A stretch of DNA of 64,000 bases from Castor canadensis (Eukaryota; Chordata; Mammalia; Rodentia; Castoridae), in contig NC_133401.1 in the NCBI RefSeq assembly GCF_047511655.1, positions 47,697,570 through 47,761,569 of the forward strand, in the 5' to 3' direction. This document shows positions 23,002 to 52,170 of the stretch, piece after piece. The notes beneath the pieces are model-generated. The model saw nothing but the letters and a program-made list of their open reading frames with translations. It had not been told where the DNA came from and did no database searches. The translations under genes and the position numbers were made by a program. Each line of letters starts with the position of its first letter. The first letter of the stretch is position 1.

Positions 23002-24311
23002 TCATCTATGAAGTGAAACAAAGGTCTCTAGCTTTTCTGGGATATGCCCTTTATAGTATATTCTATGATTCACGATGACACGAGCAGCAAGACACTGCAA
23101 TGTGGTATGATTTATGGGCTGGATCAAATTTTTAGCTATTTCCTTCTCGTCCAGCAAGTCACTAGCAGTTTGTTTGTGCAAGTTTGTAGCATCAAAATGT
23201 GCACCTGATTTAATAAGGAGATTCATGATGTCTGGATGGTTGTTCAGAGCAGCAATATGTAGGGGACTGTTGTCATCAGAGTCTCTGACATTCACATCAG
23301 CACCGCATTCTATGAGAATCGCGGTAACTTGCAGAGATGGAAATTTACAAACAGGGTACCGCCCGACACATGTAGTATTCTTGTCCACAGCCAGATGAAG
23401 AGGGCTGAAGTTATTCTTCCCCCGTGGATGCAGCTTTAGAAATCTGTAGATAGTCTGCTTCTTGAAATGGTCCTGTTCTAGAGTACAAGGAACTTTTTCT
23501 AATAAGCAAATTAAGTGTAAAATGATGGAAAGAGCCTTATTTAACTGCAATGGGTCTGCTGGACACTGAGTTTGTTTGATAGCTCGCTCAATTTCAAGGA
23601 CACTTTTGCACAGTATGCCCATCAAATCATCGAATGTAACAGTAGTACCCAGTAAACCTTTAGCCCTATCCTGGAGCATAAAGGAGAACAGTTCTGCAAA
23701 AGACAGTAAGCTACTGGCAGTCATTGGGCTCAAAGGGTCCAAATTGTTCTGCTGCATATCCAAAGCATACTTCCACAGGTTGATACAGCGTTTAAAATTT
23801 CCAGAGTCTGCATAGACAGCGCCTCTGTATCTGATATAGTAAGAGGTATCAGGATGAGAAGGACCGAGAATACGTTCTCTAATCAACAGTGCTTGCATTC
23901 TCATCTCATCAGGGTCAGCAATAAGACCTTCCAGCTCTTCTGCACTGTTTACCTCCTTGGCATAATCATAAGCCATTATTAGTGTCTGTGGCACTGGTTT
24001 GCTAATTATATTAGTCCTGTCACTGTATCTCATGTTCATTGCCTTTTTCCAGTATTTCAAAGCCCCAAGTAGATCTCTTTTTTTGTCTACAAATGTAGCT
24101 CCCAGAAGCTCTAGTGCATTGATACGTTCTGTCTTGCTGGTCTGTGCATGGTGTGTCAGAAAATCCACAATATTTGTGTGGCCAGTCACACTTGCTGAGA
24201 GAAGAGGAGTCATTCCATAGCCATCCTTTTCCATCCTGGCACAATACATAAGAAGCATCTTCATGATGTCCAAACTTCCAGACTCTGCACAATCATGCAA
24301 TGCAGTATTAC
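23002..24311 (-). CDS. FEM1C: FEM1C coding exon 2 (residues 182-617), C-terminal part
   Basis: This exon encodes the last 436 residues of fem-1 homolog C and ends at a stop codon at 23002-23004. The acceptor AG is at 24313-24312. The exon starts with GT, which completes a split glycine codon with the last G of the previous exon, giving 544 + 1310 = 1854 nt, that is 617 codons plus stop, the full family length. Visible parts are the end of the N-terminal ankyrin array (NTALHD, GYGMTPLLSA), a TPR-like middle region around YYIRYRGAVYADSGNF, two C-terminal ankyrin repeats (FSPLHLAVD, NSPLHIAALN) and a VHL-box-like tail (TLQCLAARV). Known from the family: FEM1 proteins bind Elongin B/C and CUL2 through the tail and recognise arginine-type C-degrons with the N-terminal ankyrin domain. 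No disabling mutation is seen. Identification rests on recognising the protein. Confidence 0.97.
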
Positions 24312-26380
24312 CTTTAAGAGAGGGAAAAGAAGAACGCACTTTGAGGGACCAAGTGTAACATAGAACACATACAGACTTCAGAACCTAACTCAAAGCTGCC
24401 TTTAAGTAGGACTGACCTAATTTGATTACAAAGGAAAAAACAACTATCCTCAGCACCTGAAATCAGTCTCAAACACACAGCAGGAACTGAAGAAAGTATC
24501 TGTTAAACTTAGTGAGTAAATAACATGACTGAATTGGTATGAAAAGAAAAAACCCAAAGCCATCAGACAAAACTCAAAATTAATCCATGGCTTCTTGCTA
24601 TTTTTCATTAATGTTTTCAAGTGCATATTCTTTGACTAAAAACAGATTAAATAAAATTATCAAGCTAACTGGAGTTTTGATGACAGTCACTTAACTTTCA
24701 GGGTCAGCCTTCACATTCTTGAGCAAGGAATCTAGTTTACAGTATCTAAGACTCTTCCGTTTGATTCTATTAAGGAACAGAAATTATTGTTTCATATTTC
24801 TGATTGTCAAGTGAGTGTGAGCTGTTTTAGCCAAAATTCTTGGTTACAAAGTACTTTCTCCAAAATGTTTCAAGAAAAAACAAGTCCATTGAAATCTGAA
24901 AAATATGTGGGTGGTTCAATATGAACTTTAAAAGGAGACATTTGAAATGTCCTTTCAGAATGGATTATTTCCCATTGTAATTTAGTTTTTTTAAAGAATC
25001 TTTTTAGATGTACTAAATGTTCTAACACTGTCCTGTTCTTCCCACACATAAATGAGAACTGACAACAGGCACTGGCATGTTAGTAAAAGCCTATATGAAA
25101 CATATGAAGACATTACAAACATCAGGTATTTTAACTAATGAAAAACACTTCACTGCTCATCAAAAGAAAAATTATGCAGACCCTTGATATGTATGTACAA
25201 TGTTTGTAGAAAGTTCAACAGTGAGTCATTTCAGGCACATCTACAGAAAGGTGTTAACACAGCAGGCTGAGATGACCATGCTTGGAAAGACGTCCATGCA
25301 AGGTTGACCTTTGGCATCTGGGAACTCGACTGGTACAAACAGTTCTCTACACTGATATAAACCTTTCCCTAAATGATAAGGGTGGCCCACTCTCCCAAAA
25401 CTGTAATTTATTGTTCAACACCTGGTTTCCTTCTAGGGATCTGAAATTCTATGTGTGTTAGGGAAAGGACATCTATGAGACTAGTCCCTAATAATAACCT
25501 TAAAGTGCTGAGTCTGTTATGGGTTTCCATAGACAAAAACATCATGCATATTTTCATGGTTGGGGAAGAGTGTACTCTGTGACCCTTCATGAAACTGAGA
25601 GAGAATAAAGCCTGCCTGCACACATTTCTCTACCTTAACCATGCCTTTCCCCTATGTGTGTCTTTATAACATCACTGAGTTAAATCTTAGCCATGAGTAT
25701 AATGCTATGGGGAAATCACCTTCAAACATGAGGGCAGCTTTGGGGACCCCCCCCCCACAGCATGTGTACCAGAGAGTAGTTTAAACCTGAATGCTTCAAA
25801 TAACAAATCTACTCTATAACTAAAGTTAGAAACATCAATCTTTTCCTAAATTTACCTTGATTGAATCTTCTTGGTATCCATAAGGAATATTCATTGCGAC
25901 CTAGAATTTCATTGATCTACGATGAAATGGTGTCTGATAAAAATGTTTTTAAAATGTATATGGTAACCAAGCACTGAGAGCACCCAGAACTTCTGTTTAC
26001 TGATGTTCATTTGTCCAAAATCATTTCAATCAAATATGACCACTATACCAAATATGTTTCTAAGAGTTGAACTGAATCCCTCTATTCCCATTTTTTCCCT
26101 AAGAAACAGGTAATTAGGTAAAGAGAAATCTGAACAGAAAGAGAAGGCTGACATAACATTCTTTCTCTATTCAGAGTGACATAAAGATAAGACTGCAACA
26201 AAAGTCAGTTTTAGAATTGACTCGATATCTGTATTTCTTGGAAAACAGACAACATGTATACTTTGAGTAAACCCATATATAAGGGACAAAAAGTGACTTA
26301 AAAATTAAAAAACAGAAGACTTTTACATCAGTAATGGCAGAAGGAAGAAATATGATCACCCTGTGCTAAGAACTAGAAGA

Positions 26381-31329: not shown

Positions 31330-32560
31330 AAGTGAAAAAACAGTCCACAGGATGGGAGAAATATTTGCTAATCATCTGATAAAGCACTTGTATTCTAATG
31401 TTGTTGTATATAGACAACTTTTAAAGGTAGGTAATGAAAGGAGAAATAACCTAATTTAAAAAGTGCAAAATCCCAATGAGGAAACATTCACACAACTTAC
31501 TACCTATCCCAGCCCCAGAGCCTGTAAAGGTGAACCTACTGGGGCTATACTTCTCCAAAAGATGGCCAATAAGCATATGAATTAAATACACAAAGGATGC
31601 TAAAATCATAAGCCACTGGAGAAATATGAAACAAAAATCCCAGTGAGATAAATACCAGGTCAGACTTCCTGTATTGCTGCATTTAAAAAGAAAACAATAA
31701 CAAGTGCTGGAGAGAGTACATAAACAAACTGGGACCCTCCCACACTGTGACAGGAATGTGAATGGTGCAGCTGTTTTGAAAAACAGTTTGGTAGTTCCTC
31801 AAAAGGTGAAACAAGAGAGTTACCACATGGTCCAACCACTCTACTCCTAGATATTCTCCGGAAATGAAAACATACATTCACAGACTTTTTAAATAAATGT
31901 CTATAACAGCATTACTCATAAAAACTAAAAAGTAGCCTGGCGCCGATGGCTCACACCTGTATTATAGTTACTCAGGAGACAGAGATCAGGAGGATCATGG
32001 TTCGAAGCCAGACTGGGCAAATAGTTCTGTGAGACCCTATCTTGAAAAACCCCTCACAAAAATAGGGCTGGTAGAGTGGCTCAAGATGAATGTCCTGAGA
32101 TCAAGCCCCAGTACTGCAAAAAAAAAAAAAGCTAAAAAGTAGAAATAATCAAATGCCCATCAGTTGATGAATAGATAAAAGTATATCTAAATAATGGGAT
32201 ATTATTCAGCAATAAAAAGTATTCATACATGTACAAACTGAATGATCCTTGAAAATATTACGCTAAGTGAAAGAAGTCACAAATGACCACATATTATAAT
32301 TCTACTTACATAACATGTCTAGAACAGGCATATTTGGAGACAGAAAGGAGAGTAGTGATCACCTCAGACTAGTTTAGTTTTCAGTAGAGGAGTGGGATGT
32401 AACTGCTGATGGACATGGGTTTGTTTTTTTGTGGGGAGAGGAAGTGGAAAATTTGCAGTGATAGCTACACAACTCAGTGAACATACTTAAAAAACCCACT
32501 GAATTGAATACTTTAAATCAGTAACAGTATGTGATTTATTAACACTGTTAAAACATGCAA
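31330..32560 (+). repeat. Old L1 3'-end relic, split by a composite SINE
   Basis: Phrases in L1 3' order: ATGAGGAAACATTCACAC, AAGTGCTGGAGAGAGTACAT, AAACTGGGACCCTCCCACAC, CCCATCAGTTGATGAATAGA, ATGGGATATTATTCAGCAAT. Dead copy. Confidence 0.75.
31936..32131 (+). repeat. Composite SINE with 11-bp target duplication
   Basis: B1-like (GATGGCTCACACCTGTATTA), linker, ID-like (AGGGCTGGTAGAGTGGCTCA), A-tail; flanked by CTAAAAAGTAG at 31925-31935 and 32132-32142. Confidence 0.92.
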
Positions 32561-39277: not shown

Positions 39278-39620
39278 AAAAATGTATTACATTTAACTAT
39301 ACCCCCAAGCAGATGAAATGATAAGCCTGAATCAACACTGAGTACTACCAGGCTCTGCTGCTCTGGGAACCAATTTCCAGGAGGTGGAAATTACTCCAAG
39401 AGAGAAAATGCTGCTTAACACATAAGGCTTTATCGCACTTGTTCACTGTATTACTAAGTAACAGAGAAATTCAACAAGGTAATCCTGGAAGGGTTACCTA
39501 ATCAAAACACGTCTGTCGTTGTTGGCTTACTCAACACCAATGCCTGTAATTATGTATCAAACTTCCTGAAAATAAGTGGGAGTCACTTAAAACAACTCAG
39601 AACAAAGCAGCTGAACTCAC

Positions 39621-40164
39621 CTTTAACACTTTTTCTATTGACATCTGCCCCCTTTTCAAGTAAATACTGAGCAATCTCCTTATGTCCTTTGTAACAGGAA
39701 ATCATCAAGCACGTGTGCCCGTGCCGGTTTGACACTTCCAAATCAGCTTTGTGCTCTACGAGGTACTTCACTATTTCCAAATGACCATCAAAACACGCGG
39801 CGCGAAGAGGAGTCGAGTTGGTCAAAGTCGTGTTGTTGACAGATGCCCCATGATTTAACAAAGACTGTACCACCTTCAGATGTCCTGCTGCGGACGCGGC
39901 CCACAGAGGCGGCGCCCCCTCGATGGTCTCGCCGTCGAAGTTGACGGAGCCCCCGACCTCTATGGAGGCACTGCACTGCTCCAGGAGGAACTCCACCATG
40001 TCCAGGTGCCCATACCTGGCAGCCATCAAGAGTGGCGTGGCCCCGTTGGTCTTCTCGGAGATCAAGGAGGAAACCTCCTCTTTGGATTTGCTTGCCAACA
40101 ATTTGGTGAGAAGCCGGAGTTTGCCATCCCGCGCTGCGTTGAACACTGCTGTCTTTAGATCCAT
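39621..40164 (-). CDS. FEM1C: FEM1C coding exon 1 (start codon, residues 1-181 plus split codon)
   Basis: The start codon is at 40164-40162 and the exon carries 181 full codons plus one base. It encodes the N-terminal ankyrin repeats (TPLLMAARYGHLDMVEFLL, PPLWAASAAGHL, TPLRAACFDGHLEIVKYL, TCLMISCYKGHKEIAQYLL), the domain that in FEM1 proteins forms the pocket for C-terminal degrons ending in or containing arginine. The donor is AAAG|GTGAGT at 39621/39620; the open frame running past it to 39583 is intronic read-through and is not coding. The start MDLKTAV distinguishes FEM1C and FEM1A from FEM1B, and the rest fits FEM1C best. The exon is GC-rich near its start because it lies at the edge of the promoter CpG island. 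Confidence 0.97.
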
Positions 40165-40336
40165 CGATGTCCTGTCACAGGCTGCGCTGTATTATTGATC
40201 CTACAAGGCGACGCTCCAGCTTAACTCTACCAGACCCAAGTTCAATGTCAGTCACTGCACCCCAGAACAGATATAAAGCCACGGGGAGGATGTTCCGTCC
40301 TACTGCATTTCAACATCTGACAAGTAGGGCTGCAAA
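40165..40336 (-). other. FEM1C: FEM1C 5'UTR part of the start-codon exon, with splice acceptor
   Basis: Reading the minus strand, a long pyrimidine run ending in CTTTCTGTAG lies at about 40337-40355, an almost ideal 3' splice site. Exonic sequence would begin at 40336, 172 nt before the ATG. FEM1C orthologues are known to have a noncoding first exon, so this acceptor fits. Other AG dinucleotides nearer the ATG (for instance before 40184 and 40172) lack a comparable pyrimidine tract. Confidence 0.65.
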
Positions 40337-41089
40337 CTACAGAAAGAAAAAAGTAGGTCTGAATCTTCCATAAGTTAAAAACAGCAAAAAACATCATTTA
40401 GGCTTTCTTCATTTCTAATTATGTAGGAAGAAGGGAGTTAAAAAAAAAAAAGAAAAGATGTACTTTGGAGGCTATTTTCCCCCTTCGCCCCCCGCCCAAA
40501 AAGTGGGAAAGGGAACTACAAAAGGGTCACAGCGGGACCCAAGCACTCCAAGACACCTGGTTCTGTCCCCAGCTTTGTTCTAGTGTGGCTCTGCCCACGC
40601 CCAGGGACAGCAGAGAAATGCTGGTCGTCCTCGCATCTGCAGAGAAGAGCGGCCAAGGGCGCGGGGCTGCAAGGCCTCATGGTGGCCAGGACGAGTTTCG
40701 AGGAGGAACAACAAAAAAAGGCCGGCCACAGCAATCCTCGGCCAGCCAACGCCAAAAACTAGCCCGACAGCCGTCCGTCCTACCCAACCACTCGAGGCTC
40801 ACAGGAAATCCGGCTGCCTCTGGCCGTGAACTTCGCCCGCCCCATTTTGCGCCCCCCACCCCTTCAAGGCTCCTCCACATCCCCCCAAAAACCACGTAGC
40901 CGCCACGGCCGTCACCTCCTCCGTGGATACCGGGGCCTCCCCAAGCCCCATGGCCCCACCACGGCGCCTCCAAGGGTCGGGCCGGTCCGGGGCCTCCAGC
41001 CGGCCGCCTCTTCCGTCCCCGCCGCCCGCCTTCCCGCTCAGGCCTTCCCGAGAGCCCCCGAGCCCACCTGACCCGACCGCCGCCACTAC
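40337..41089 (-). other. FEM1C: Predicted FEM1C intron 1 (5'UTR intron)
   Basis: The acceptor at 40337-40340 can pair with either of two donors in the CpG island: CAG|GTAGTG with the exon ending at 41090, or CAG|GTGGGC with the exon ending at 41068. The intervening DNA is GC-rich and holds no recognisable repeat. Long open frames on both strands here are a product of GC content and low stop-codon frequency, and I do not call them genes. Confidence 0.45.
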
Positions 41090-41750
41090 CTGCCCGGGGT
41101 CAGTGCTCCCGCCGCCGGCAGCCGCTCGGGCTCGGGCCGCCCCCCTTCAAATGGAAACCGTTGTCCCTGCCGCCGCCCCAGCCGCCCTGCTCCGCCTGCG
41201 GCCGCACAGCTCCTCCATGCCCCGCGCCCCACAGGAATGAATCCGGCCGCGCTGCTCGCCTCGCCCCGCCCCGCCGAGCCGCCTCCCGCCCTCTCAGGCT
41301 GCTCGGGCCGCAGCGGCTGCCTCGGCGGATGGTGTAATGGGCTGCGGGCCGGGGGCCGGACAAGCCCGAGCTCTGCTTCACATTACTGACGCGGCAGCCG
41401 AGCCATTGGGCCGGGGGAGGGCGGCGGCCGCCTGGAGCAACCGCCTAAGGGCGGGACAGGCCACCGCGGCCTGGGCGGGGAGCCGTGAAAGGGGCGGGGC
41501 GCCTTGGGGGCGGAGCCACCGCGAGTTCCGCGAAGGACGCGCCTGCGTGTGGTGGGCGGGGGGGGGAGGGGGTGCCGTGAAGGACGCGCCTGCGCGTGTC
41601 GGGGGGGGGGGCGCTGTGACAGGGCGGGGCGCAGTGGGGGCCGGGCCGCCTTGAGCTCCGCGAGTGACGCGCTTGCGTATGGCTGACCGTGGGCGGAGTG
41701 CTGTGGCGGGGCGGGGTCAGAAACCGCGGAAATCTCGCGGCACCACAACT
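40480..41750. promoter_or_regulatory. FEM1C: CpG-island promoter of FEM1C
   Basis: About 1.2 kb of very CpG-rich DNA stands out from the AT-rich surroundings on both sides. It contains several GGGCGG/CCGCCC Sp1-type boxes, for example in 41440-41520 and 41620-41720, and three spaced copies of a GACGCGCyTGCG-type motif at 41535-41550, 41582-41599 and 41664-41682, which resembles NRF1-type sites. It overlaps the 5' end of FEM1C. A divergent transcript to the right is possible, but no gene is seen there. Confidence 0.85.
41090..41400 (-). other. FEM1C: Likely FEM1C noncoding exon 1 and transcription start region
   Basis: The GC-rich sequence upstream of the donor at 41090/41089 is the natural place for the noncoding first exon. 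There is no TATA box, as usual for CpG-island promoters. The exact start cannot be read from sequence, so the right edge is only a guess. Confidence 0.4.
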
Positions 41751-42775
41751 TTCAGGATTTTCCTGCTCTAGCTCGGGGGATCCTTAGGTACCGAGCCAGA
41801 ACATCCCAAGAATGTCGACCAGTGTTGCTATCCTACCCACAGGCGCACTCTCAGGTTAGTATACCCAGCTCGTAACTGCACGTGAAAACAAAAGCACTCA
41901 AGACCGAAATTTCAGAAAATGAGATTAGTTCTGAAGGCCACCAAACATGACATTTAAAAAAAGACACGTCTTTGAAAAATATGAAGACTGCGAGGAATGG
42001 TAAACCTAAGAGCAGTATAAAACCAACAGGGTGTTCTGGAATTTTGAACAATAAACCAAAAGATGAAAGAAGAGCCAAATAGTTTACATGAATGAAAGGA
42101 ATTGCTACTATAGCAGGAAACAAATTTATGGAAATCGTGACGTTAAAATCTGAATGGACGGGATTAAGCTACTTTGAAGAAGAGTTTAAGTATGTTTGAG
42201 AGGAGATTAGTGCAGAATGAACTTCATGGACAACGAAAAAAAGTGTAAAGTGGGAGAGTTTATTGGTATAGAAAAGTGTTAAGTGGGAGAACCAAACCTC
42301 TGGGGGAGGTTCCCAAGAGAAGGTGCCAGAGAAGTGACCAGATCTGAGGTTTTTTTAAGCCATTCTTGGCAGGGCGTTGAGCAGCATTTTGGTTGGCTGT
42401 GCCTGCAACGTTCTGATTGGTGCGTCCTGATCCTCACATGGTCTGTCCTGCCTTTCCTTCTTTTCACCCTTCAAGGTCACAGGGAGGTCATAATGGAGGT
42501 TTCCAAGGGCTCTTCTGTCTCATTTGGAAAATAACACCTGTAATGAATCATGAGAAACAGACCTTCAATCTCTTAAACACTTGATTTAGTGGAACTTGGA
42601 TTCACACAATTACTTAGTACCACTGGGGAAAAGGGAATTTTAGAGTACATTGACCTTCAGAATCATAGATGTCATCATCACCATTATACACAAGCCATGC
42701 AACACTAAAAACATTTTATAAAAAGTCACTTCTTCATTGTCTAGAAGTTTATGTACTTTTACATAATTGACTCAT
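41751..42775. other. Upstream flank of FEM1C, no gene seen
   Basis: Between the CpG island and the SINE holding the provirus. Open frames at 41851-42123 and 42279-42534 have no recognisable product. Confidence 0.55.
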
Positions 42776-42966
42776 TTTTTTGTTGGTGGTGATGGAACTA
42801 GGACTTGAATTCAGGCCTTCTTGCTTTCAAAGCATGGACTGTACTGCTTGAGCAACACCTCCAACCCATTTTGTTCTGGTTACTTTGCTGATGGGGTCTC
42901 ACAAACTATTTGGCTCAGCTAGCCTCAAACCACAGTCCTCTCTATCTCAGCCTCTCAAGTAGCTAG
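42776..42966 (-). repeat. Composite SINE, left part, interrupted by the provirus
   Basis: In reverse orientation, the tRNA-derived half (CTTGAATTCAGGCC...TTGAGCAACACC) is followed by most of a B1-like half ending at AGTAGCTAG, where the provirus is inserted. The SINE has its own duplication TTGACTCAT at 42767-42775, matched at 51526-51534 beyond the provirus. Confidence 0.9.
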
Positions 42967-43375
42967 TGTTAGGACCCGGAATCCTATTCCCCCGAGAGAC
43001 AGAGAGCCAGGCGTGAATGCAATCAACAAAGCAGAGTTTATTGGACTGGCTAGCCAGGGTCGAGCTCCCACACGGACACGCAGGACCGGTTAGGAAAGCA
43101 AGACCCTGAGCCTCTTAGGGGGAAATCTTATATAGACTGCAGTGGCGTGCATATTTTTGTTATCAACATTAGACAAGCAGGCAGAGCACATCCTGCACGT
43201 ACTTCACATCTTGCTCGTATCTCACATCTTGCTCGTATCTCACATCTTGCATTCCTCACATTCTATATGCCCTAACTGAGCCCTGCCTCATTGCTTATCT
43301 TATCTACATGGGATGTTTGGTACTGGTTTCTCCAACAAGGGGGTTGGGGCCCGCTGAGACCTCATATTCCTTTCA
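42967..43375 (-). repeat. Proviral 3' LTR (409 bp)
   Basis: Identical copy of the 5' LTR at an offset of 8116 bp. The TATA-type box is at 43134-43127 and the AATAAA at 43042-43037, the latter ending the viral transcript. The 18-bp U3 repeats are at 43205-43222 and 43223-43240, with a partial unit at 43241-43250. Its promoter points leftward, toward the FEM1C CpG island about 1.2 kb away. Confidence 0.96.
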
Positions 43376-43389
43376 TTCCCCCCTTTCTT
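43376..43389 (-). other. Polypurine tract of the provirus
   Basis: The minus strand reads AAGAAAGGGGGGAA directly before the TGAAAG start of the 3' LTR. It is the expected primer site for plus-strand DNA synthesis and has the standard gammaretroviral form. Confidence 0.92.
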
Positions 43390-43394
43390 ATGGC

Positions 43395-45284
43395 CTAAAT
43401 TGAGGAATCATCCTCGAGAGGATGAAGAGCCTGATATTGTTGGCGGAGGACCAGAAGTTGGATAGTATTAATTCGACTTTTGACAAAAGTCATAAGTCGG
43501 TTTAGAATCCAGGGTCCTATGGTAACAAGCAGTAGGATGATTATTATTGGCCCTGCCAGTGCAGATAAAAGGGTAGCCAACCATGGGGACTGGTTAAACC
43601 AAGACTCGAACCAGCTTTCCCCTGCCTCTTTTTCTCGTTTTCTTTGTTCCAGGCTCTTTCGGAGTTTAGACATGGAGTCACGAACAAGTCCGGTATGGTC
43701 AGCGTAAAAACAACATTCTTCCCCTAGAGCAATGCATAGTCCCCCTTTTTGGAGGAACAACAAGTCCAGACCTCGTCGGTTTTGAAGTACTACCTCAGAC
43801 AGGGAAGTGAGGGATTTTTCTAGGTGGCTAATGGAGGTTTCTATTCTCTCTATATCTTCATCTATGGCTGCGCGCAGCGAAGACATCCCTTTATGTTGAG
43901 TAGCCAGGGAGGCTATGCCGGTCCCTGCCCCAGCCACCCCTAGGCTAAGTAGGGTAGCAATGGTTAGTGTAGAAATAGGCTCTCTCTTCTTTCTCTCACC
44001 TGTTCCTATATTCCAGTATGAATATAGACTTTCCTCCGAATGATAGAGGATGCGGGGCAGCACAACCACTATAACACAGAATTCTTTAGAGCTGTTAAAC
44101 ACCTTAGTTGATAGGCATGGGGTGAGTCCGGACCGCGAGCATAGCCACCACCCATTGTCCTTTGGAATTACCCATTTAATAGCATTTCCCCAGGTAGAAC
44201 TGGCGTTAATAACAGTACATAAGTCCCGTCTGTTCTTTGGCACTTTTCCTAAGCAGGTTCCTTGGCCGTTTACCTGCTGTATGGTCAGACCTCTCTTACG
44301 GTCTCCCCAGGAACATTGACTAGGGTTTTCCTCAGATGAGGTATCGTGAGTGGTGTTTAGCCCTATTGCCTCATAGAATGGGGGCCTCACATCATAACAT
44401 AACCAACAGGAGTTAGTCATGTTAGGGTTGGTGTGGTTTAACGTCAGGAAGGCAGCACCCACTAGCTCCCAGAGGGGGTCTTTAGATGCGGTCATGAGAC
44501 TGGGCCTCACCAGGGGAGGGCTGGTTTCTGATGGTCTTGGAGTTGTAACATTAGCCCGAGCTATGGTTGAGGGAAGGTGGTGAGTTGTGGAAGGTTGGGG
44601 AGATGGCTTTACATTGGGCGGCCTAAGTACCTTATTGGGGCCTACTGCTGTGGACGGTGGCCCTATGGGCTCAATTTTTAATCTGACCACTATGGTCGAG
44701 CCAGCATGTCCACCATATTTATAAAATACCAGTCCCCATACCTTACCTTGTATCCACCCAGGGGTGTCCTTCTTGCCAGTTTCAGTGAAAGTGACCTTGA
44801 TTCTATCTAGATCCGTGGGCTGGCATTTATGGGTGGGTATTGGAATTCTGTGCCCCCTTAATATCCCATTTACAAAGGCAAATTTGACTAGGTCTGATTT
44901 TGATATCCCCCATTTCCATTCACTATCATTGGATGTGACACATGCCCATGACCTACAGAAGGAGTATTGTATCCCCCCACATTCCTGGTTCTTTTTGTGG
45001 CCGGGGCAGGCATAAAACCCATAACGTCGGGCTGACTCCGGGGCAGTAGACTTGTAGGCAGGATTGATGTCTCTGAAGCAGAACTGAAGCTCCGGCCACC
45101 AAGTTCCTATGGGGGCAGTGCGAGTAGTCTCGTTGAGGGTGGTATGAGTCTCCCCATCGGTGAGTATCCAGGTTTGCTTATAGGGCTGGTGAGGGTTGGT
45201 TTCTGCGAGGCTCCCGCTCTGGGCATTGAGCAAGATCAGAGCGATCAGCCACCCCATCCGTGGCTGCTCCTGAAGGCTCTGCAT
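43395..45284 (-). CDS. env: Envelope glycoprotein (SU and TM), intact frame of 629 residues
   Basis: A hydrophobic signal peptide lies near residues 10-27. SU carries an NPHQ motif (30-33), a proline-rich linker (about 208-262), the CWLC isomerase-type motif (293-296) and several N-glycosylation sites (for example N51, N245, N310, N360). RKKR at 431-434 is the furin-type cleavage site. TM follows with a hydrophobic fusion-peptide stretch (about 437-460), a heptad region, the CX6CC motif (C517, C524/C525) that pairs covalently with CWLC, a membrane span (about 570-592) and a short cytoplasmic tail. This is the gammaretroviral type of Env. Translation would be from a spliced RNA. The start could also be the second Met at residue 10, which gives a more compact signal peptide. 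No stop or frameshift is seen. Confidence 0.95.
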   Translation of the reverse strand: MQSLQEQPRMGWLIALILLNAQSGSLAETNPHQPYKQTWILTDGETHTTLNETTRTAPIGTWWPELQFCFRDINPAYKSTAPESARRYGFYACPGHKKNQECGGIQYSFCRSWACVTSNDSEWKWGISKSDLVKFAFVNGILRGHRIPIPTHKCQPTDLDRIKVTFTETGKKDTPGWIQGKVWGLVFYKYGGHAGSTIVVRLKIEPIGPPSTAVGPNKVLRPPNVKPSPQPSTTHHLPSTIARANVTTPRPSETSPPLVRPSLMTASKDPLWELVGAAFLTLNHTNPNMTNSCWLCYDVRPPFYEAIGLNTTHDTSSEENPSQCSWGDRKRGLTIQQVNGQGTCLGKVPKNRRDLCTVINASSTWGNAIKWVIPKDNGWWLCSRSGLTPCLSTKVFNSSKEFCVIVVVLPRILYHSEESLYSYWNIGTGERKKREPISTLTIATLLSLGVAGAGTGIASLATQHKGMSSLRAAIDEDIERIETSISHLEKSLTSLSEVVLQNRRGLDLLFLQKGGLCIALGEECCFYADHTGLVRDSMSKLRKSLEQRKREKEAGESWFESWFNQSPWLATLLSALAGPIIIILLLVTIGPWILNRLMTFVKSRINTIQLLVLRQQYQALHPLEDDSSI

Positions 45285-48200
45285 GTTCCCGGGGCCACAA
45301 AAGCTTTAGCTTTAATGGGTTGTCTGGGTGCCGCCGTACAGTCCACTCCTTGACCCCTTCTTGTTTTTGATGATTGGCTCGACGCACGTGGGAGTGGTGG
45401 ATCCAAGGTCCGATGCCATCAACCTTGAGGGCGGTAGGGGTAGTAAACAGTACAACATAAGGTCCTTTCCATCTAGGCTCTAGGGTTTTGGACTGATGCC
45501 TTTTAACCCATACCATGTCACCCGGGACTATGCCATGTTCCGGAGCCGGGTCCCTCTTAACAGCGTGGTATGCTTGAATTAAGGGCCAAATCCATTGTTG
45601 CACTTTAGCTAAAGCCTGCAACATGGTCAGGTAATTTGGGGCCAGATCACCTAGTTCTGGGCTTAAGGTCCTCTGAATGATGGGGGGTGGAGCCCCATAC
45701 AGGATCTCAAAGGGAGTTAGCCCATGGACATAGGGGGAGTTCCGGACTCGGAAGATGGCCAAGGGAAGGAGCGTCACCCAATCACCGCCAGTCTCCAGGG
45801 CCAATTTGGCTAAAGTCTCCTTTAGTGTCCTATTCATCCTTTCTACTTGCCCTGAGCTCTGGGGGTTATATTCACAATGTAGCTTCCAATTGGCCCCCAT
45901 AGTCTGGGCTAGTCCCTGCAGGACCTTACTAACAAAAGCCGGACCGTTATCTGACCCAATTGCCTCAGGCACCCCATATCTGGGTATGATTTCCTCTAGC
46001 AAAGCCTTTGCCACTACCTGACTCGTCTCCTTCTTTGTAGGAAAAGCCTCCACCCAGCCTGAAAAGGTATCTATGAATACCAGCAAATATTTGTACCCAA
46101 ACTTTCCCGGTTTTACCTCAGTAAAATCCACTTCCCAACTTCTTCCCGGAGCCCTCCCCCGTTCCCGAGTACCTGTATGGTGCCCCTCCCTTCGTCCTGG
46201 TTTCATGATTGTGCAGCTGGCACAATCTTCCACAATTTGGCGGACTGCTATGGTCTGGTTCGGAAATCGGAGCTGCGCAGATGTCAACAAGTCTAGTAAT
46301 TTTCTCCGCCCCAAATGGGTGGACTTATGTAAGTTAGCCAACAGGAATCGTCCGAGTTTTTCAGGCAGAATTAACTTGCCTTCCAAGTCGCTTTTCCATC
46401 CGTCTTCCCCTTCTCTAAAGGGGGAGTGGGCTCTCATCCAAGTGAAATCCTCTGTGGAGTATTCTGGTCGGGGGGGTAGCGGAGGGAGCTCTGGGACCGG
46501 CACGTCTATCGCCGCAACCGTGGAAGGTTGCCCTGTCTCCATGGGAGGACTCACCATTGCTACTCTCTTTGCTTCTTGATCTGCTCTGTTGTTACCGACA
46601 GCTTCCGGCGTCTTGGCAGACTGGTGGCCTGGGACATACATCACTGCCACTGCCTTCGGTTTTTCCACTGCCATTAATAGACGCTGGACTTCGGCTAGGT
46701 TCTTTAGATGTTTTCCTTCTGCTGTGCGGAATCCTCTTTCGCGATAGATGGCCCCGTGGACATGGATGGTACCGAAAGCATAGCGGCTATCGGTGTAGAT
46801 ATTGACTCGCTTTCCTTTTGCCCTCTCCAGGGCCTCTGCCAAGGCAATTAATTCCGCTTTTTGGGCTGATGTTCCGGGTGGGAGGGCGCTGCTCCATACC
46901 GTACTTCCTTCTTGGTCGACTACAGCTGCCCCTGCCCTTTGGGCTCCATCTTGGAAAAAACTGCTTCCATCCGTGTACCAGTTTAATTTGCAGCCGGACA
47001 GGGGGGTATCCTTTAGGTCAGCCCGTACCTGTGTAACTTCGGAGAGGAATTCTTTGCAGTTATGGACAGGTGTCTGCAGTTCCCGGTTAGGCAACAAGGT
47101 GGCAGGGTTCAGGATTACGGGATCTGTGAATGTGATCCGAGGGGAATCCAACAAGAGCCCCTGGTAGTGGGTGAGCCTGGCATTCGTCATCCATTTCCCA
47201 GGGGGTTGTTTAAGGATTCCCTCCACCGGGTGAGGGGCCGTTACCCAGAGGGCCTGTCCAAAGGTTAGTTTATCGGCTTCTCTCACCAGCATGGCAATGG
47301 CCGCTATGATGCGGAGGCAGGGGGGCCATCCTGCCGCTACTGCGTCTAATTTCTTGGAAAAGTATGCCACTGGTCTCTTCCAGGGACCTAGCTGTTGGGT
47401 CAAGACTCCTTTGGCTACCCCCTTTTTCTCATCTACAAACAGAGTGAATGGTCTTGTAGGATCTGGCAAGGCTAAGGCAGGGGCCTGCAAAAGAGCGTCT
47501 TTTAGCTGATCAAAGGCCTGTTGTTCTCTCTCTCCCCAACTCCAATCTGGAGCTTCTTTGGTGGCCTCATATAGGGGTCTGGCTATTTCCGCAAATCCTG
47601 GAATCCAGAGTCTACAGAACCCCGCGGAGCCCAGGAATTCTCTCACCCCCCTAGTGGATGTCGGGGATGGGATAGCCAGAATAGTCTGTTTCATGGCATC
47701 AGTCAGCCACCTTGCCCCATCTGCAATCCGATAACCCAAATACGTCACTGACCTTTTACAGATGTGAGTTTTCTTGGCACTTGCCCGATACCCCAGCTCA
47801 CCTAATTCCGTTAGCAGGTGTTCAGTAGCCTTGATGCACTCCTCTCGGGTTTCTGCCGCTAACAGTAAGTCATCAACATACTGTAATAGAGTGACTCGTG
47901 GGTGGCTCCGACGAAAAGGTTCCAGGTCCTGGCTCAGGGCCTCATTAAACAGGGTGGGAGAGTTTTTAAATCCTTGCGGCAGTCTGGTCCAAGTGAGCTG
48001 TCCGGATTGGCCCCCATCTTCTTGCCATTCGAAAGCAAATAGCGGCTGACTAATTTCTGACAATGGAATGCTGAAGAAAGCATCTTTCAAATCAAGGGTT
48101 GTATACCATACTTGCGAGGGGGGTAGGTGGCTGAGCAAGGTATAGGGATTTGGAACGGTGGGATGAATGTCCTCCGTCCGCTCGTTTACCTTTCGTAGGT

Positions 48201-48900
48201 CTTGCACAGGCCTATAGTCCCCGCTTCCCGGCTTTCGGACAGGGAGCAGAGGAGTATTCCAGGCAGACTGACAAGGTCGCAGTATTCCTTCCTTTATTAG
48301 CCTGTGGATATGAGGGGCTATGCCTCTTCGGGCCTCCTCAGGCATAGGATACTGTTTCACCCGAATGGGGAGAGCAGAAGCCTTCAATTGTATAACTACG
48401 GGCGGGAGGTGTTTGGCGAGGCCGGTTCCCGCAGTCTCCGCCCAGGCCGTGGGAAATCTTTTTACCCAATGAGTCATGTCCCCTCCTGGTTCCTGTTGAC
48501 TCTCAAACAGACGATGCTCGTCAGCCAATGATAGGGACAAGACATGAATCGGGCTCCCTTCTCGATCAGTCACAATTATTCCATCTGGTTCAAAATGGAT
48601 ATGGGCCCCTATTTTGGTGAGTAGGTCCCGTCCGAGCAGGGGAGCGGGGCTCTCAGGGACGACCAAGAAGGAGTGTGTGACCTGGTGTTTTCCTAAGTTC
48701 ACCTTTCTTTTGGTAGTCCATGTACATAACTGCGTACCGGTGGCCCCCTGAACAACACTTGTTCGTGCCTTGTTCAAAGGTCCATGTGCCTTGTTTAAAA
48801 CCGAATATTGGGCGCCGGTATCCACCATGAACCCCATCGGCTTCCCCTCCACATGCATTGTTACCCAGGACTCGGGGAGGGGGTCTGAGCCCCGTCTCCT
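45178..48900 (-). CDS. pol: Pol polyprotein: protease, reverse transcriptase, RNase H, integrase (intact frame)
   Basis: Open from the codon after the gag TGA to a stop at 45178-45180. Numbering from the first Met (48858), 1226 residues. Protease shows VDTGAQ (12-17) and LLGRD (74-78). Reverse transcriptase shows LPQGF (293-297), catalytic D256 and YVDD (327-330). RNase H has D630, E669, D690 and D760. Integrase has the H844/H848/C879/C882 zinc site, the D911, D970, E1006 triad with the classic 35-residue spacing, and a C-terminal GPY module (about 1132-1134). All catalytic residues that I looked for are present. Like other gammaretroviruses, it should be made as Gag-Pol by stop-codon readthrough. 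Its end overlaps the env start by 107 nt in another frame. Because of the upstream gag break, this copy cannot make a normal Gag-Pol. Confidence 0.95.
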   Translation of the reverse strand, partial: RRRGSDPLPESWVTMHVEGKPMGFMVDTGAQYSVLNKAHGPLNKARTSVVQGATGTQLCTWTTKRKVNLGKHQVTHSFLVVPESPAPLLGRDLLTKIGAHIHFEPDGIIVTDREGSPIHVLSLSLADEHRLFESQQEPGGDMTHWVKRFPTAWAETAGTGLAKHLPPVVIQLKASALPIRVKQYPMPEEARRGIAPHIHRLIKEGILRPCQSAWNTPLLPVRKPGSGDYRPVQDLRKVNERTEDIHPTVPNPYTLLSHLPPSQVWYTTLDLKDAFFSIPLSEISQPLFAFEWQEDGGQSGQLTWTRLPQGFKNSPTLFNEALSQDLEPFRRSHPRVTLLQYVDDLLLAAETREECIKATEHLLTELGELGYRASAKKTHICKRSVTYLGYRIADGARWLTDAMKQTILAIPSPTSTRGVREFLGSAGFCRLWIPGFAEIARPLYEATKEAPDWSWGEREQQAFDQLKDALLQAPALALPDPTRPFTLFVDEKKGVAKGVLTQQLGPWKRPVAYFSKKLDAVAAGWPPCLRIIAAIAMLVREADKLTFGQALWVTAPHPVEGILKQPPGKWMTNARLTHYQGLLLDSPRITFTDPVILNPATLLPNRELQTPVHNCKEFLSEVTQVRADLKDTPLSGCKLNWYTDGSSFFQDGAQRAGAAVVDQEGSTVWSSALPPGTSAQKAELIALAEALERAKGKRVNIYTDSRYAFGTIHVHGAIYRERGFRTAEGKHLKNLAEVQRLLMAVEKPKAVAVMYVPGHQSAKTPEAVGNNRADQEAKRVAMVSPPMETGQPSTVAAIDVPVPELPPLPPRPEYSTEDFTWMRAHSPFREGEDGWKSDLEGKLILPEKLGRFLLANLHKSTHLGRRKLLDLLTSAQLRFPNQTIAVRQIVEDCASCTIMKPGRREGHHTGTRERGRAPGRSWEVDFTEVKPGKFGYKYLLVFIDTFSGWVEAFPTKKETSQVVAKALLEEIIPRYGVPEAIGSDNGPAFVSKVLQGLAQTMGANWKLHCEYNPQSSGQVERMNRTLKETLAKLALETGGDWVTLLPLAIFRVRNSPYVHGLTPFEILYGAPPPIIQRTLSPELGDLAPNYLTMLQALAKVQQWIWPLIQAYHAVKRDPAPEHGIVPGDMVWVKRHQSKTLEPRWKGPYVVLFTTPTALKVDGIGPWIHHSHVRRANHQKQEGVKEWTVRRHPDNPLKLKLLWPREHAEPSGAATDGVADRSDLAQCPEREPRRNQPSPAL

Positions 48901-48903
48901 TCA
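48856..48903 (-). promoter_or_regulatory. Gag-pol junction: in-frame TGA with possible readthrough structure
   Basis: TGA at 48903-48901 is the only stop between the nucleocapsid frame and pol. It is followed by an 8-nt purine-rich spacer (AGGAGACG) and then GGGCTCAGACCC..., which can form a GC-rich hairpin whose loop CUC could pair with a downstream GAG. Murine leukaemia virus uses a stop, an 8-nt spacer and a pseudoknot for readthrough. The pseudoknot here is inferred and has not been folded. Confidence 0.6.
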
Positions 48904-49036
48904 GTCCTCTTCTCCGGCTAGTAGGACTCTGGCCTGCTCTACTGCTCGTTCCCTTTCCCTGTTTTCCCCCAGTCTCCTTCCAAACCCTCTTCTTCCCTTT
49001 AACTTAGGACATTCTCTCTTCCAATGCCCCGTTTCC
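48901..49036 (-). pseudogene. gag: Out-of-frame remainder of nucleocapsid, up to the gag-pol stop
   Basis: The frame that continues downstream of the gag break shows the second half of a retroviral zinc knuckle (KETGHWKREC) followed by a basic stretch (KLKGRRGFGRR) and ends at TGA (48903-48901). The cysteine that should close the first CX2C pair is absent in either frame at the junction. This indicates a small deletion that is not a multiple of three rather than a designed frameshift. The remainder is in the same frame as pol. Confidence 0.88.
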
Positions 49037-50599
49037 TTAGTAAAAACAGTGTTCCTTATCCGGGGTCCTGGCGTGGCCCCCTCCTCTGGGTTGGTCCCGG
49101 ACACCCGCTAGGAAAATACGAGCCATTTCTCTCTGTTGCTTTCGGTTTTCCTTAGCCTGGAACTCCCGGTCCTCCTTTCTCAATTTCTCCTGGGCTTCCC
49201 TGTCTTCCTTTCTCTGTCTTTCCTCCCTTTCTTCTGGAGTTTCCCTAGCGGTAAAGACCTTTTCTGCTACCTGTAGCATTTCCCTTATAGTCATCTCCCC
49301 TAAGTTTTCCTGTTTATTGAGTTTTCTCCTAATGTCTGGGGCTGCCTGATTAATGAATGAGAGTACCACAGCAGACCGGTGGAGGTCCGCCTCAGGGTCA
49401 ATTGGGGTGTACTGACGGTATGCCTCATAGAGGCGCTCTAAGAAACCGGCTGGGCTTTCGTTTTCCCCTTGAATGACTGCTTTTACTTTTGCAAAATTGG
49501 TGGGCCTTCTAGCGGCCGCTCGGAGACCGGCCATCAGAGTCTGGCGGTAGATCCGAAGACGCTCCCTACCTTCTGCGGTCCCGAAATCCCAATCAGGGCG
49601 GCGTAGGGGAAAAGCCTCGTCTATGGCCGGTTGGAGAGTTGTGGGTCTCCCATTATCCCCCAAGACATTCTTCCTCGCTTCGTTGAGGATGCGCTCTCGT
49701 TCCTCCGTCGTAAAAAGAGTATTGAGCAGCTGATGACAGTCATCCCAAGTGGGGCGGTGTGTATGCATGATGGACTCCAGGAGATCTATGAGACACTTGG
49801 GGTCTTCAGAAAAGGGCGGGTTCTGCGTCCTCCAGTTATATAGATCACTGGAGGAGAAGGGCCAGTACTGAAACTGTTGCCCTCCTCCCGGTCCCCCTTG
49901 GCCCACCATCCGGACTGGAAGTGTAGGGACAGTTTCCTCCCCCTGTGTTGATGAGGGGGGCCCGTCTTCCCCCTCCCTTTCCCGGATCCCTCGGGGGCGA
50001 AGTCTTCGACCCATTCCTCCTCCTGCTGCCAGTCCTGTTGAGGAGGATGAGGAAATTTCCTCCTCCGGGGCACTGGCTTGGCCAGGGGGAGTCACGTATG
50101 GAGGCGGCCGATCTTCCTCTGCCCCTGCGAGGGATGGGTAAAGGGGGGAACTCTCTGGTAAGACCGGAGATGGTGAAGGAGATGCCCTAATTTGAGGACC
50201 GGTCAAGGTGGGAAGAGGAAGTTTTTCCTCCTCCTTTATGACCAAGGCGGGCGTGACTGGGGTTTTAGCCCCGGGGGCCGAACTGGAGGGGTGGGTCAGA
50301 AAAACTGTTAACCAAGGGGGAGGGTTCCTCACCAGATCCTCCCAAACCAAAATGTAAGAAACTTGGTCTGGATGGCCTCGATTGTCTGGCTGAAAAATGA
50401 CTGCTTTAACCTTAGTGATCAGGTCTAGGGAGAGGGAACCTTGAATGGGCCACCCGACTCCAAAGGTGGGCCACTCTGCAGAACAAAAGGTGTCGAACTT
50501 ACCTTTCTTGATGACCAGACCCGCATTTAAGGCCCTTTCTTTAACTTCTGGAAAGTGAGAAAGGATCAGAGACTTTGGGGTTGTTTGTCCCTGTCCCAT
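49037..50599 (-). CDS. gag: Gag polyprotein (matrix, p12, capsid), frameshifted in nucleocapsid
   Basis: The chosen start at 50599 gives MGQ..., the N-terminal glycine expected to be myristoylated. The open frame is 520 codons. Matrix occupies roughly residues 1-115. A proline-rich p12-like region follows, with late-domain-type motifs PLYPSL (152-157) and PPPY (165-168). Capsid begins near PVRMVG (228), with the gammaretroviral YWPFSSSDLYNW signature at 245-256. The major homology region lies at 377-395 (QGENESPAGFLERL...). A charged, coiled-coil-like helix spans 452-490. The frame ends at a TAA (49039-49037) right after the first cysteine of the nucleocapsid zinc knuckle, and the rest of the knuckle is in another frame. 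Gag assembles the particle at the plasma membrane and packages RNA through nucleocapsid, so this copy should be defective for packaging. Confidence 0.93.
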   Translation of the reverse strand: MGQGQTTPKSLILSHFPEVKERALNAGLVIKKGKFDTFCSAEWPTFGVGWPIQGSLSLDLITKVKAVIFQPDNRGHPDQVSYILVWEDLVRNPPPWLTVFLTHPSSSAPGAKTPVTPALVIKEEEKLPLPTLTGPQIRASPSPSPVLPESSPLYPSLAGAEEDRPPPYVTPPGQASAPEEEISSSSSTGLAAGGGMGRRLRPRGIREREGEDGPPSSTQGEETVPTLPVRMVGQGGPGGGQQFQYWPFSSSDLYNWRTQNPPFSEDPKCLIDLLESIMHTHRPTWDDCHQLLNTLFTTEERERILNEARKNVLGDNGRPTTLQPAIDEAFPLRRPDWDFGTAEGRERLRIYRQTLMAGLRAAARRPTNFAKVKAVIQGENESPAGFLERLYEAYRQYTPIDPEADLHRSAVVLSFINQAAPDIRRKLNKQENLGEMTIREMLQVAEKVFTARETPEEREERQRKEDREAQEKLRKEDREFQAKENRKQQREMARIFLAGVRDQPRGGGHARTPDKEHCFY

Positions 50600-51187
50600 T
50601 GTGGAAGGAGACTCAAACACCAAGAGAGATAGAACAAAAAGGGTAAAGGCAACAATAATTCCACACACACACAACACTCTCCAGCACTCGCTCGGACCGG
50701 TCCTTCTCTCACACTGGTGCGCACCCCATTCAACCTCCTCACCGTCCAACTGGGATATCAGGCCGAAAGGCGTCCACTTGACGGGTGGTCGGTCAACTAG
50801 CTCAATTAGTTCTTCACCTGGCGCCAGGGTTCCTAAAATGCTCGAGCCCAAATGAGAGGAAAGCCTCTCCCAATAGGACCCTGTGGTCCTCCTTGCGAGA
50901 TTCCCAGAATGAATCTCCCTGGGGATTGGCCGAATCCCCGCCGCGGCCCAAATGGAACACTCAAGTTCCTCCAAATGAGGGTCTGGGATCCCCTCCCAAC
51001 GCCTAGGACTTGGGATCGCCCCTGCTTTCTCGCAGGCAGGTTCTGTCTCTCGAGAAAATGAAATCTCGGTGGGACCTCCAAATGTTAGGACCCGGAATCC
51101 TATTCCCCCGAGAGACAGAGAGCCAGGCGTGAATGCAATCAACAAAGCAGAGTTTATTGGACTGGCTAGCCAGGGTCGAGCTCCCAC
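50600..51187 (-). CDS. Open leader frame in phase with gag (glyco-Gag-like extension)
   Basis: The gag frame stays open for 196 codons upstream of the gag ATG, back through the primer-binding site into the R region of the LTR. There is no in-frame ATG, and the track start at 51187 is a GTG. Just before the gag start is a strongly hydrophobic run (codons at about 50677-50615, about 21 residues rich in Val, Leu, Ile, Phe and Cys) flanked by charged residues. This matches the layout of the CUG-initiated glyco-Gag leader of murine leukaemia viruses, where a membrane anchor precedes a full Gag. Which non-ATG codon would start it cannot be read. Openness over this length in a GC-rich leader could be chance, but the membrane segment next to gag makes function plausible. 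Confidence 0.5.
50812..50820 (-). other. Candidate major splice donor in the proviral leader
   Basis: CAG|GTGAAG on the minus strand (exon ending at 50818, GT at 50817) lies between the primer-binding site and gag, where a donor for spliced env RNA is expected. Other donors are not excluded. Confidence 0.35.
51063..51080 (-). other. Primer-binding site for tRNA-Gln
   Basis: Two bases after the 5' LTR, the minus strand reads TGGAGGTCCCACCGAGAT. Its complement matches the last 18 nt, including CCA, of mammalian tRNA-Gln as I remember it (acceptor end ...GGTGGGACCT plus CCA). Glutamine sites are known among endogenous murine leukaemia viruses, whereas many other gammaretroviruses use proline. 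Confidence 0.88.
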
Positions 51188-51491
51188 ACGGACACGCAGG
51201 ACCGGTTAGGAAAGCAAGACCCTGAGCCTCTTAGGGGGAAATCTTATATAGACTGCAGTGGCGTGCATATTTTTGTTATCAACATTAGACAAGCAGGCAG
51301 AGCACATCCTGCACGTACTTCACATCTTGCTCGTATCTCACATCTTGCTCGTATCTCACATCTTGCATTCCTCACATTCTATATGCCCTAACTGAGCCCT
51401 GCCTCATTGCTTATCTTATCTACATGGGATGTTTGGTACTGGTTTCTCCAACAAGGGGGTTGGGGCCCGCTGAGACCTCATATTCCTTTCA
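51083..51491 (-). repeat. Proviral 5' LTR (409 bp)
   Basis: On the minus strand it runs from TGAAAGG (51491) to CCTAACA (51083). A TATA-type box TATATAAG is at 51250-51243 and an AATAAA poly(A) signal at 51158-51153. Upstream in U3 lie two exact 18-bp tandem units (51321-51338 and 51339-51356) plus a 10-bp partial third, a usual form for retroviral enhancers. This copy would drive the viral transcript. It is identical to the 3' copy. Confidence 0.96.
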
Positions 51492-51525
51492 CTAGGATTA
51501 CAGGAATGAACCACCAGAGCCCAAC
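51492..51525 (-). repeat. Composite SINE, right part, resuming after the provirus
   Basis: After the CTAG duplication the B1-like sequence continues as GATTACAGGAATGAACCACC, exactly where the left part stopped, and ends before TTGACTCAT. Confidence 0.9.
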
Positions 51526-51696: not shown

Positions 51697-52170
51697 GAAA
51701 AACAAAAGATCATTTTCCTCCTAGACAGTGGAGCCCATTTCTCTGTTTTACCTTTTTCTCCTTGTCCCTGGTCCAATGACAAAAGTTATCGTTTGGGGCA
51801 AATCTGGCTAGCCCCTAGAGCGCTAGTTTACCTGGCTCTTGGGGAGACCTCTTCTGTCACTTTTTCCCCATAGTACCAGTGTCCCTGCTGGGACAGGATT
51901 TACTATCTCAATTAAAGCTCAAATTGTCCTCCTCCCAGGCAGCTATCTCTGCTACCCTCTCCTTCAGGAACAAATAGATCCCACAGTGTGGACTGATGAG
52001 ATGAGTGTAGTGTGAGCCAGGACAGCCCTCCCTATTCAAATAAAACTCAAAAAATCCCTCACAGTTTCCACACCCAAAACAATATCCCCTCAAGCCTGAG
52101 GGATGATGAGGACTTATGCCTATTCCTTAAAACAACAAGGGCTACTAATTAGTTGTTCCAGCCCCCTATA
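51697..52170 (+). pseudogene. pol: Decayed protease and reverse-transcriptase start of the old element
   Basis: Plus-strand translation shows LLDSGAHFSVL (protease D-S/T-G region, 51711-51743) and, after stops and a frame change, a stretch resembling LLGQDLLSQLK (about 51883-51915). An RT-start-like region follows (KQYPLKPE, about 52076-52099). Several stops are present, so it encodes nothing. No gag remains between it and the LTR piece. Confidence 0.7.

What the first reader, a model, noticed from the sequence alone, without database searches (positions are those of the whole stretch)
42967..51491. Full-length gammaretroviral provirus with two identical LTRs
I aligned both 409-bp LTRs by eye and found no difference. 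They are identical at integration and drift afterwards, so this copy must be very young, perhaps still unfixed in the species. A 4-bp CTAG duplication, tRNA-Gln primer site, polypurine tract and open pol and env support recent activity of the family.
Basis: partly seen in the sequence, partly recalled or inferred. Interest (0 to 1): 0.93.

Follow-up and report, generated by a model that had tools for sequence, protein, structure and literature searches.

The report
Young provirus from an erupting family
A recently inserted mouse-leukaemia-type retrovirus copy, broken in one gene, belongs to a family with hundreds of copies in this animal's genome, many of them very young, and one sister copy has been multiplied into a huge repeat block beside what looks like a centromere.

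Summary
Two 409-bp LTRs with no difference bound an 8,525-bp gammaretroviral provirus on the minus strand, with CTAG duplications. Its primer site matches a host tRNA-Gln(CUG) gene. pol and env are open, but gag is not: a two-base gap, found in no other exact match in the assembly, breaks the nucleocapsid zinc knuckle, so this copy alone should not replicate.

Near-identical LTRs are the rule here. Of 20 sister pairs taken in chromosome order, 17 had no substitution; 5 changes in 8,540 sites give about 0.07-0.13 My at assumed rates. Of 100 listed LTRs (of 237) with the window's allele, 96 lie in provirus-sized pairs. Fixation was not tested.

Outside the coordinates: the provirus lies 1.1 kb upstream of the FEM1C CpG island, in the gene's orientation. 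On contig C1, a sister insertion in satellite DNA (duplication AGCG) has become a 1.37-Mb block with 35 satellite/LTR edges and head-to-tail proviruses sharing LTRs, beside satellite that looks centromeric. Kangaroo KERV is the nearest precedent found.

The parts
42963..42966 (.). target-site duplication CTAG (left)
42967..43375 (-). 3' LTR, 409 bp (sense strand is minus); TATATAA at LTR position 242, AATAAA at 334, 18-bp repeats in U3
43376..43389 (-). polypurine tract AAGAAAGGGGGGAA next to the 3' LTR
43395..45284 (-). env from the first Met to the stop; SU CWLC, RKKR cleavage site, CX6CC, YxxL near the C-terminus; Pfam TLV_coat
45178..48900 (-). pol, open: protease DTGA, RT YVDD, RNase H, integrase with MLVIN_C
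48842..48903 (-). gag/pol readthrough site, Rfam GP_knot1 (52 bits, below the gathering score 67.7), with TGA instead of TAG
48904..49038 (-). rest of nucleocapsid, in pol's frame, cut off from gag by the lesion
49037..50599 (-). gag from MGQ... (MA, PPPY, CA/p30) to a stop inside the zinc knuckle: broken
51063..51080 (-). primer binding site TGGAGGTCCCACCGAGAT, complementary to the host tRNA-Gln(CUG) 3' end
51083..51491 (-). 5' LTR, identical to the 3' LTR
51492..51495 (.). target-site duplication CTAG (right)
42839..42966 (.). left part of the target SINE (B1-like plus tRNA-like halves; names recalled)
40700..41850 (.). CpG island, taken as that of FEM1C, 1.1 kb from the 3' LTR
39583..40191 (-). 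FEM1C first coding exon (Met at 40164)
23002..24384 (-). further large ankyrin-repeat exon on the same strand, taken as FEM1C (Pfam only)

Best explanation
A germ-line insertion of a gammaretrovirus family that was amplifying by reverse transcription until very recently, probably within the last 0.1-0.3 My. Shown: provirus anatomy, 4-bp target duplication, tRNA-Gln primer match, identical LTRs, and many sisters with the same features at other sites. Shown: this copy's gag is interrupted in nucleocapsid, and the exact broken stretch occurs nowhere else in the assembly. Inferred: the lesion arose during this copy's own synthesis or after it landed; the copy can still give pol and env messages but cannot alone package RNA; its integration near the FEM1C CpG island reflects the usual BET-protein steering of gammaretroviral integrase; its 3' LTR, reading towards FEM1C, could act as an extra promoter.
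For: LTR and TSD; domains; readthrough pseudoknot; host genes called tRNA-Gln(CUG), tRNA-Gln(UUG) and tRNA-Thr(UGU) whose 3' ends match the three PBS types seen in sister copies; 568 LTR|PBS junctions (older subfamily included) against 0 for the reversed control; 237 LTRs with the window's allele, 48 pairs and 4 singles among the 100 listed; 17 of 20 order-sampled LTR pairs without substitution; 32 of 35 pairs with 4- or 5-bp target duplications; lesion stretch found once, in the window; CpG island and FEM1C.
Against: No reads and no second individual: LTR identity could in part reflect assembly or gene conversion. 3 of 20 order-sampled pairs have substitutions (3, 1, 1) and 4 of 20 differ in 18-bp repeat number. 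The pairs required an exact 35-base match in both LTRs, which leans slightly towards identity. That 35-base allele also occurs in LTRs that align less well to the window's (L174, L175), so 237 is not purely the youngest clade. 3 of 35 pairs show no target duplication. Rates are assumed, not measured for this host. BET steering rests on one insertion site here. No pol tree was made.
Confidence: 0.9

Rival explanations
1. An older insertion whose LTRs were made identical by gene conversion or by the assembler.
For: A single pair cannot exclude it. LTR-LTR exchange does happen in this family.
Against: Dispersed pairs are mostly alike within pairs (17 of 20 without substitution) yet differ between pairs in 18-bp repeat number, PBS type and substitutions, which a collapse to one sequence would not give; single LTRs are few (4 among 100 listed).
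Confidence: 0.05
2. The copy is a DNA-level duplicate thrown out of the C1 tandem array rather than a retroviral insertion.
For: Same young subfamily; the array is a large pool of copies.
Against: The window copy has its own CTAG duplication in a SINE, lacks the array LTR allele (103 forward, 0 reverse hits; all 100 listed lie in the C1 block), and its LTR differs by 3-7 substitutions from 20 of 20 sampled array LTRs.
Confidence: 0.02
3. A provirus kept by selection for a host use (Env or a FEM1C promoter).
For: pol and env open; LTR upstream of and co-oriented with FEM1C.
Against: Youth alone explains open frames; no conservation test is possible without other species.
Confidence: 0.03

Closest known systems
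Murine leukaemia virus group (Gammaretrovirus)
   Same: Gene order, Pfam Gag_MA/Gag_p30/RVT_1/rve/MLVIN_C/TLV_coat; among the best solved-structure matches are entries named for Moloney MLV or XMRV; GP_knot1 readthrough pseudoknot; 4-bp duplication.
   Different: Readthrough codon is TGA; PBS is Gln or Thr rather than Pro (the MLV state is recalled); young LTRs of 391-463 bp with an 18-bp repeat of variable number.
KERV arrays in kangaroo centromeres (Ferreri 2011; not read; known only from passages of PMC11899658 and PMC10815390)
   Same: Retroviral units in tandem sharing LTRs, in centromeric DNA.
   Different: Here 35 left edges and 5 of 5 sampled right edges share one insertion site in satellite, the block is assembled over 1.37 Mb, and the family also has many young dispersed copies (237 LTRs with the window's allele).
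HERV-K111/K222 in human pericentromeres (PMC4425911, abstract read)
   Same: One provirus multiplied by recombination of pericentromeric DNA.
   Different: K222 is spread over nine chromosomes and about 25 My old; here the array edge was found on one contig only.
Tandem LTR-retrotransposons of plants (PMC11899658, passages read)
   Same: Units sharing an internal LTR.
   Different: Mammalian retrovirus, tens of units, inside satellite.

Membership tests
Gammaretrovirus-type endogenous provirus | TG...CA LTRs, short target duplication | tested here: met
   in sisters 24 of 35 have 4 bp, 8 have 5 bp, 3 none found
Gammaretrovirus-type endogenous provirus | gag-pol-env with gammaretroviral domains | tested here: met
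Gammaretrovirus-type endogenous provirus | gag and pol in one frame with a readthrough stop and pseudoknot | tested here: met
   (52 bits, E 9.9e-11, below the curated gathering score; TGA); in this copy gag is broken just upstream
Gammaretrovirus-type endogenous provirus | position in a pol tree among gammaretroviruses | not tested
   no reference set: protein database off; viral contigs gave no relatives
Gammaretrovirus-type endogenous provirus | tRNA primer | tested here: met
   host tRNA-Gln(CUG) for the window copy
Replication-competent provirus | all genes intact | tested here: not met
   gag stop inside the zinc knuckle
Insertion still polymorphic in the species | empty allele exists | not testable with these tools
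   one assembly; joined-flank searches unanswered
Centromeric retroviral tandem array (KERV-like), for the C1 block | head-to-tail units sharing LTRs | tested here: met
   14 of 20 sampled LTRs lie between PPT and PBS; 49 of 89 spacings are one unit
Centromeric retroviral tandem array (KERV-like), for the C1 block | location at a functional centromere (CENP-A) | not testable with these tools
   only satellite structure seen

The most novel reading that the evidence does not exclude
A retrovirus caught in two kinds of expansion at once: a germ-line burst of reverse-transcribed copies that is at most a few hundred thousand years old, using at least three host tRNA primers, and in parallel the birth of a retroviral macrosatellite, in which one insertion in (peri)centromeric satellite was multiplied through LTR-LTR exchange and copied with its satellite flank into a 1.37-Mb higher-order block.
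Probability: 0.55. Interest if true: 0.82.

Novelty: new member of a known kind. Interest (0 to 1): 0.62.

Why it matters
It gives a mammal in which a gammaretroviral invasion is young enough that most sampled copies still have LTRs without substitutions and few have collapsed to solo LTRs, so polymorphism, silencing and loss can be followed directly. The C1 block makes the question of how a mobile element becomes a satellite testable, because the founding insertion (TSD AGCG) and segments of one or several units are still legible. The tRNA-Gln to tRNA-Thr difference in primer sites among sister copies points to primer switching within one burst.

Tried and rejected
Relatives by protein search: database off for both queries. 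Four scans of viral contigs with RT (two), Env and capsid pieces found no relative. So no pol tree was built.

Copy from the C1 array: rejected on flank, TSD and LTR alleles. Older element with converted LTRs: unlikely.

Host species: the SINE next to the insertion looks to me (recall only) like the B1-ID type of squirrels, beavers and kangaroo rats; beaver is a guess. A search for beaver gammaretroviruses returned no paper holding all three terms, and another gave four papers, off-topic by title. Passages of two beaver papers (PMC5335264; PMC5295618) did not settle it.

A SNORD22-like match at 31471-31598 first suggested the SNHG1 locus (recalled); the neighbouring exon is FEM1C, so it is probably a stray copy.

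Full report
Observation. The two LTRs at 42967-43375 and 51083-51491 are 409 bp, with no mismatch, and identity ends exactly at the LTR borders; the host flanks carry CTAG on both sides. The provirus is 8,525 bp long and lies on the minus strand, so 51083-51491 is the 5' LTR. LTR features are a TATATAA box at position 242, AATAAA at 334, and an 18-bp repeat in U3. The PBS is TGGAGGTCCCACCGAGAT and the polypurine tract AAGAAAGGGGGGAA. The joined flanks read as one continuous SINE matched by four other copies in the window at 70-80% identity.

Genes. Pfam finds Gag_MA and Gag_p30; protease, reverse transcriptase, RNase H, integrase and MLVIN_C; and TLV_coat for Env. Solved-structure matches include entries named for Moloney MLV and XMRV for RT, RNase H and capsid, and 'Endogenous retrovirus group S71 member 1 Env', MLV-related Env and syncytins for the transmembrane part. 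pol and env are open, with DTGA, YVDD, CWLC, RKKR and CX6CC present. gag is not intact: its frame meets a stop inside the nucleocapsid zinc knuckle, and the rest of the knuckle continues in the frame of pol. The gag/pol boundary is a readthrough site of Rfam type GP_knot1 (52 bits, E 9.9e-11 in the short search; below the family's gathering score of 67.7) with TGA as the stop. One fetched sister stretch, L093, lacks the two-base gap, and the exact 33-base lesion stretch occurs once in the 2.81-Gb assembly, here; a copy with the same lesion and one more change would have been missed. So a form without the gap exists and the lesion is, as far as tested, private. By general knowledge of nucleocapsid function, this copy should be defective for packaging by itself.

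Place. The exon at 39583-40191 (minus) is FEM1C (best match Protein fem-1 homolog C, E 3.1e-125). A further ankyrin/TPR exon lies at 23002-24384. A CpG island covers about 40.7-41.85 kb. The provirus begins 1,117 bp upstream of it, in the same orientation as the gene. Gammaretroviral integration near start sites and CpG islands through BET proteins is described (abstract starts of PMC3848119 and PMC6974304 in the listing); here it is one site and only consistent with that.

Age of this copy. Zero differences in 409 bp bound the age at 1.66 or 0.81 My (95%) for assumed rates of 2.2e-9 and 4.5e-9 per site per year. That alone is weak evidence for 'very young'.

Family. The window lies in G000:C16:47,697,570-47,761,569 of a 2.81-Gb, 181-contig assembly. 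The 40 LTRs scored there, of 1,360 first-look candidates, are 0-2 substitutions from the window's. The LTR|PBS junction (up to 2 mismatches) occurs 568 times, against 0 for the reversed control; this count includes the older subfamily. A 35-base LTR stretch with an allele carried by 29 of the 41 young rows of the LTR alignment, the window included, occurs 237 times (122 forward, 115 reverse). The 100 listed form 48 pairs (spacing 6.4-8.5 kb) and 4 singles. Of the singles, two are solo LTRs with target duplications (L042, L174), one has neither PBS nor PPT but no exact duplication (L173), and one is a 3' LTR whose partner lacks the allele (L175). L174 and L175 align less well to the window LTR (scores 349 and 345 of 409), so the allele is not confined to the youngest clade. 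Twenty pairs taken in chromosome order gave 17 without substitution (15 fully identical, since 4 of 20 differ in 18-bp repeat number, two of them within the 17) and 5 substitutions in 8,540 aligned sites, about 0.07-0.13 My with 95% upper bounds of 0.14-0.28 My at the same rates. Five pairs within that stretch of the list were passed over because already fetched; they had 1, 0, 0, 0 and 0 substitutions. The 15 pairs first fetched for their likeness gave 13 without substitution and 2 with one; they are biased and not used for the age. An older subfamily on C1, 24-32 substitutions from the window LTR, has 1-11 substitutions within its 8 fetched pairs, five of them with a 3' LTR cut short or ill-bounded by my fetch window. 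So the family has an older layer and a very young burst.

Primer switching. Among 35 young pairs (15 chosen for likeness, 20 in order), the PBS types are 19, 9 and 7. A degenerate 20-base tRNA 3'-end pattern matched three places in the genome, one for each type, which ARAGORN calls tRNA-Gln(CUG), tRNA-Gln(UUG) and tRNA-Thr(UGU). The Thr type occurs at 40 junctions on 16 contigs. A count of the Gln(UUG) type did not complete. Target duplications are 4 bp in 24, 5 bp in 8 and not found in 3 of the 35 pairs; one of the three is explained by a tandem copy on C3.

The C1 block. Of the 100 junctions listed (of 568), 90 lie at C1:106,764,467-107,984,531, all forward; 49 of 89 spacings are one unit (8,081-8,118 bp, internal part plus one LTR). 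Of 20 LTRs fetched there, 14 have the polypurine tract on one side and the PBS on the other, that is, they are shared by two units; 6 begin at the same satellite sequence, one of them with a single-base difference in 40. That satellite|LTR edge (31 bases) occurs 35 times, with no mismatch, all on C1 between 106,764,050 and 108,122,127. Right edges are identical in 5 of 5 sampled and start with AGCG, matching the AGCG of the left edge. An allele of the array LTR occurs 103 times, all forward, with all 100 listed inside the block. The simplest reading is one insertion in satellite, unequal exchange between its LTRs, and copying of the whole with its flank. The block spans about 1.37 Mb; unit number was not fully counted. 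Two 2-kb viral samples there are 99.7 and 99.25% identical to the window provirus. The flank is a 175/350-bp satellite; the neighbouring stretch sampled at 108.2-111.0 Mb is another 175-bp satellite, 98-99% identical between some distant samples and about 75% between others. Of 20 samples outside about 106.74-111.0 Mb (96-122 Mb), 19 have neither; one at 105.0 Mb matches at 72%. This looks like a centromere, but no functional evidence was available. A smaller tandem with a shared LTR lies at C3:126.06-126.08 Mb.

Precedent. Tandem retroviral units sharing LTRs are described for kangaroo centromeres, with LTR exchange as the proposed mechanism (PMC11899658, passages; KERV also in PMC10815390, passages; the 2011 paper itself could not be read). 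K222 spread through human pericentromeres (PMC4425911, abstract). My searches for a rodent or gammaretroviral case (15, 12 and 10 papers listed) showed none by title or by the abstract starts, and I read none of the rodent papers listed; this is not proof of absence.

Verdict. The finding is correct as an observation and mostly right in reading. The copy is young but defective and is one of a large burst. The wider surprise is the burst itself and the satellite block made from a sister copy.

Noticed in passing
G000:C1:106764068-108130520: 1.37-Mb block with 35 satellite/LTR left edges and head-to-tail proviruses of the same family sharing LTRs, readable as one insertion with TSD AGCG.
   Followed up: yes
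G000:C1, samples at 106.74-111.0 Mb: 175/350-bp satellites around the block, one with 98-99% identity between some distant samples; centromere-like.
   Followed up: partly
L134, L146, L148, L154 and others; one search places: 40 junctions carry a PBS matching tRNA-Thr(UGU) instead of tRNA-Gln: primer switching within one young family.
   Followed up: partly
window 48901-48903: The gag/pol readthrough codon is TGA, not the UAG given for gammaretroviruses in the abstract start of PMC4178896.
   Followed up: no
LTR U3, window 43187-43251 and 51303-51367: 18-bp repeat whose number varies between copies (young LTRs 391-463 bp) and within 4 of 20 pairs.
   Followed up: partly
window 51710-51873, strand +: Protease-like LLDSGAHFSVL stretch beside the provirus, probably an old, different ERV (Pfam RVP E 0.072, below cut-off).
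   Followed up: no
window 31471-31598, strand +: SNORD22-like sequence (72 bits) away from its usual host gene (recalled); probably a stray copy.
   Followed up: no
G000:C3:126062070-126078341: A second, small tandem with a shared LTR and Thr-type PBS; next to its outer PBS only the last 37 bases of an LTR were found.
   Followed up: partly
G000:C1:141004405-141029109: Two separate young proviruses within 25 kb in the same orientation with different target duplications.
   Followed up: no
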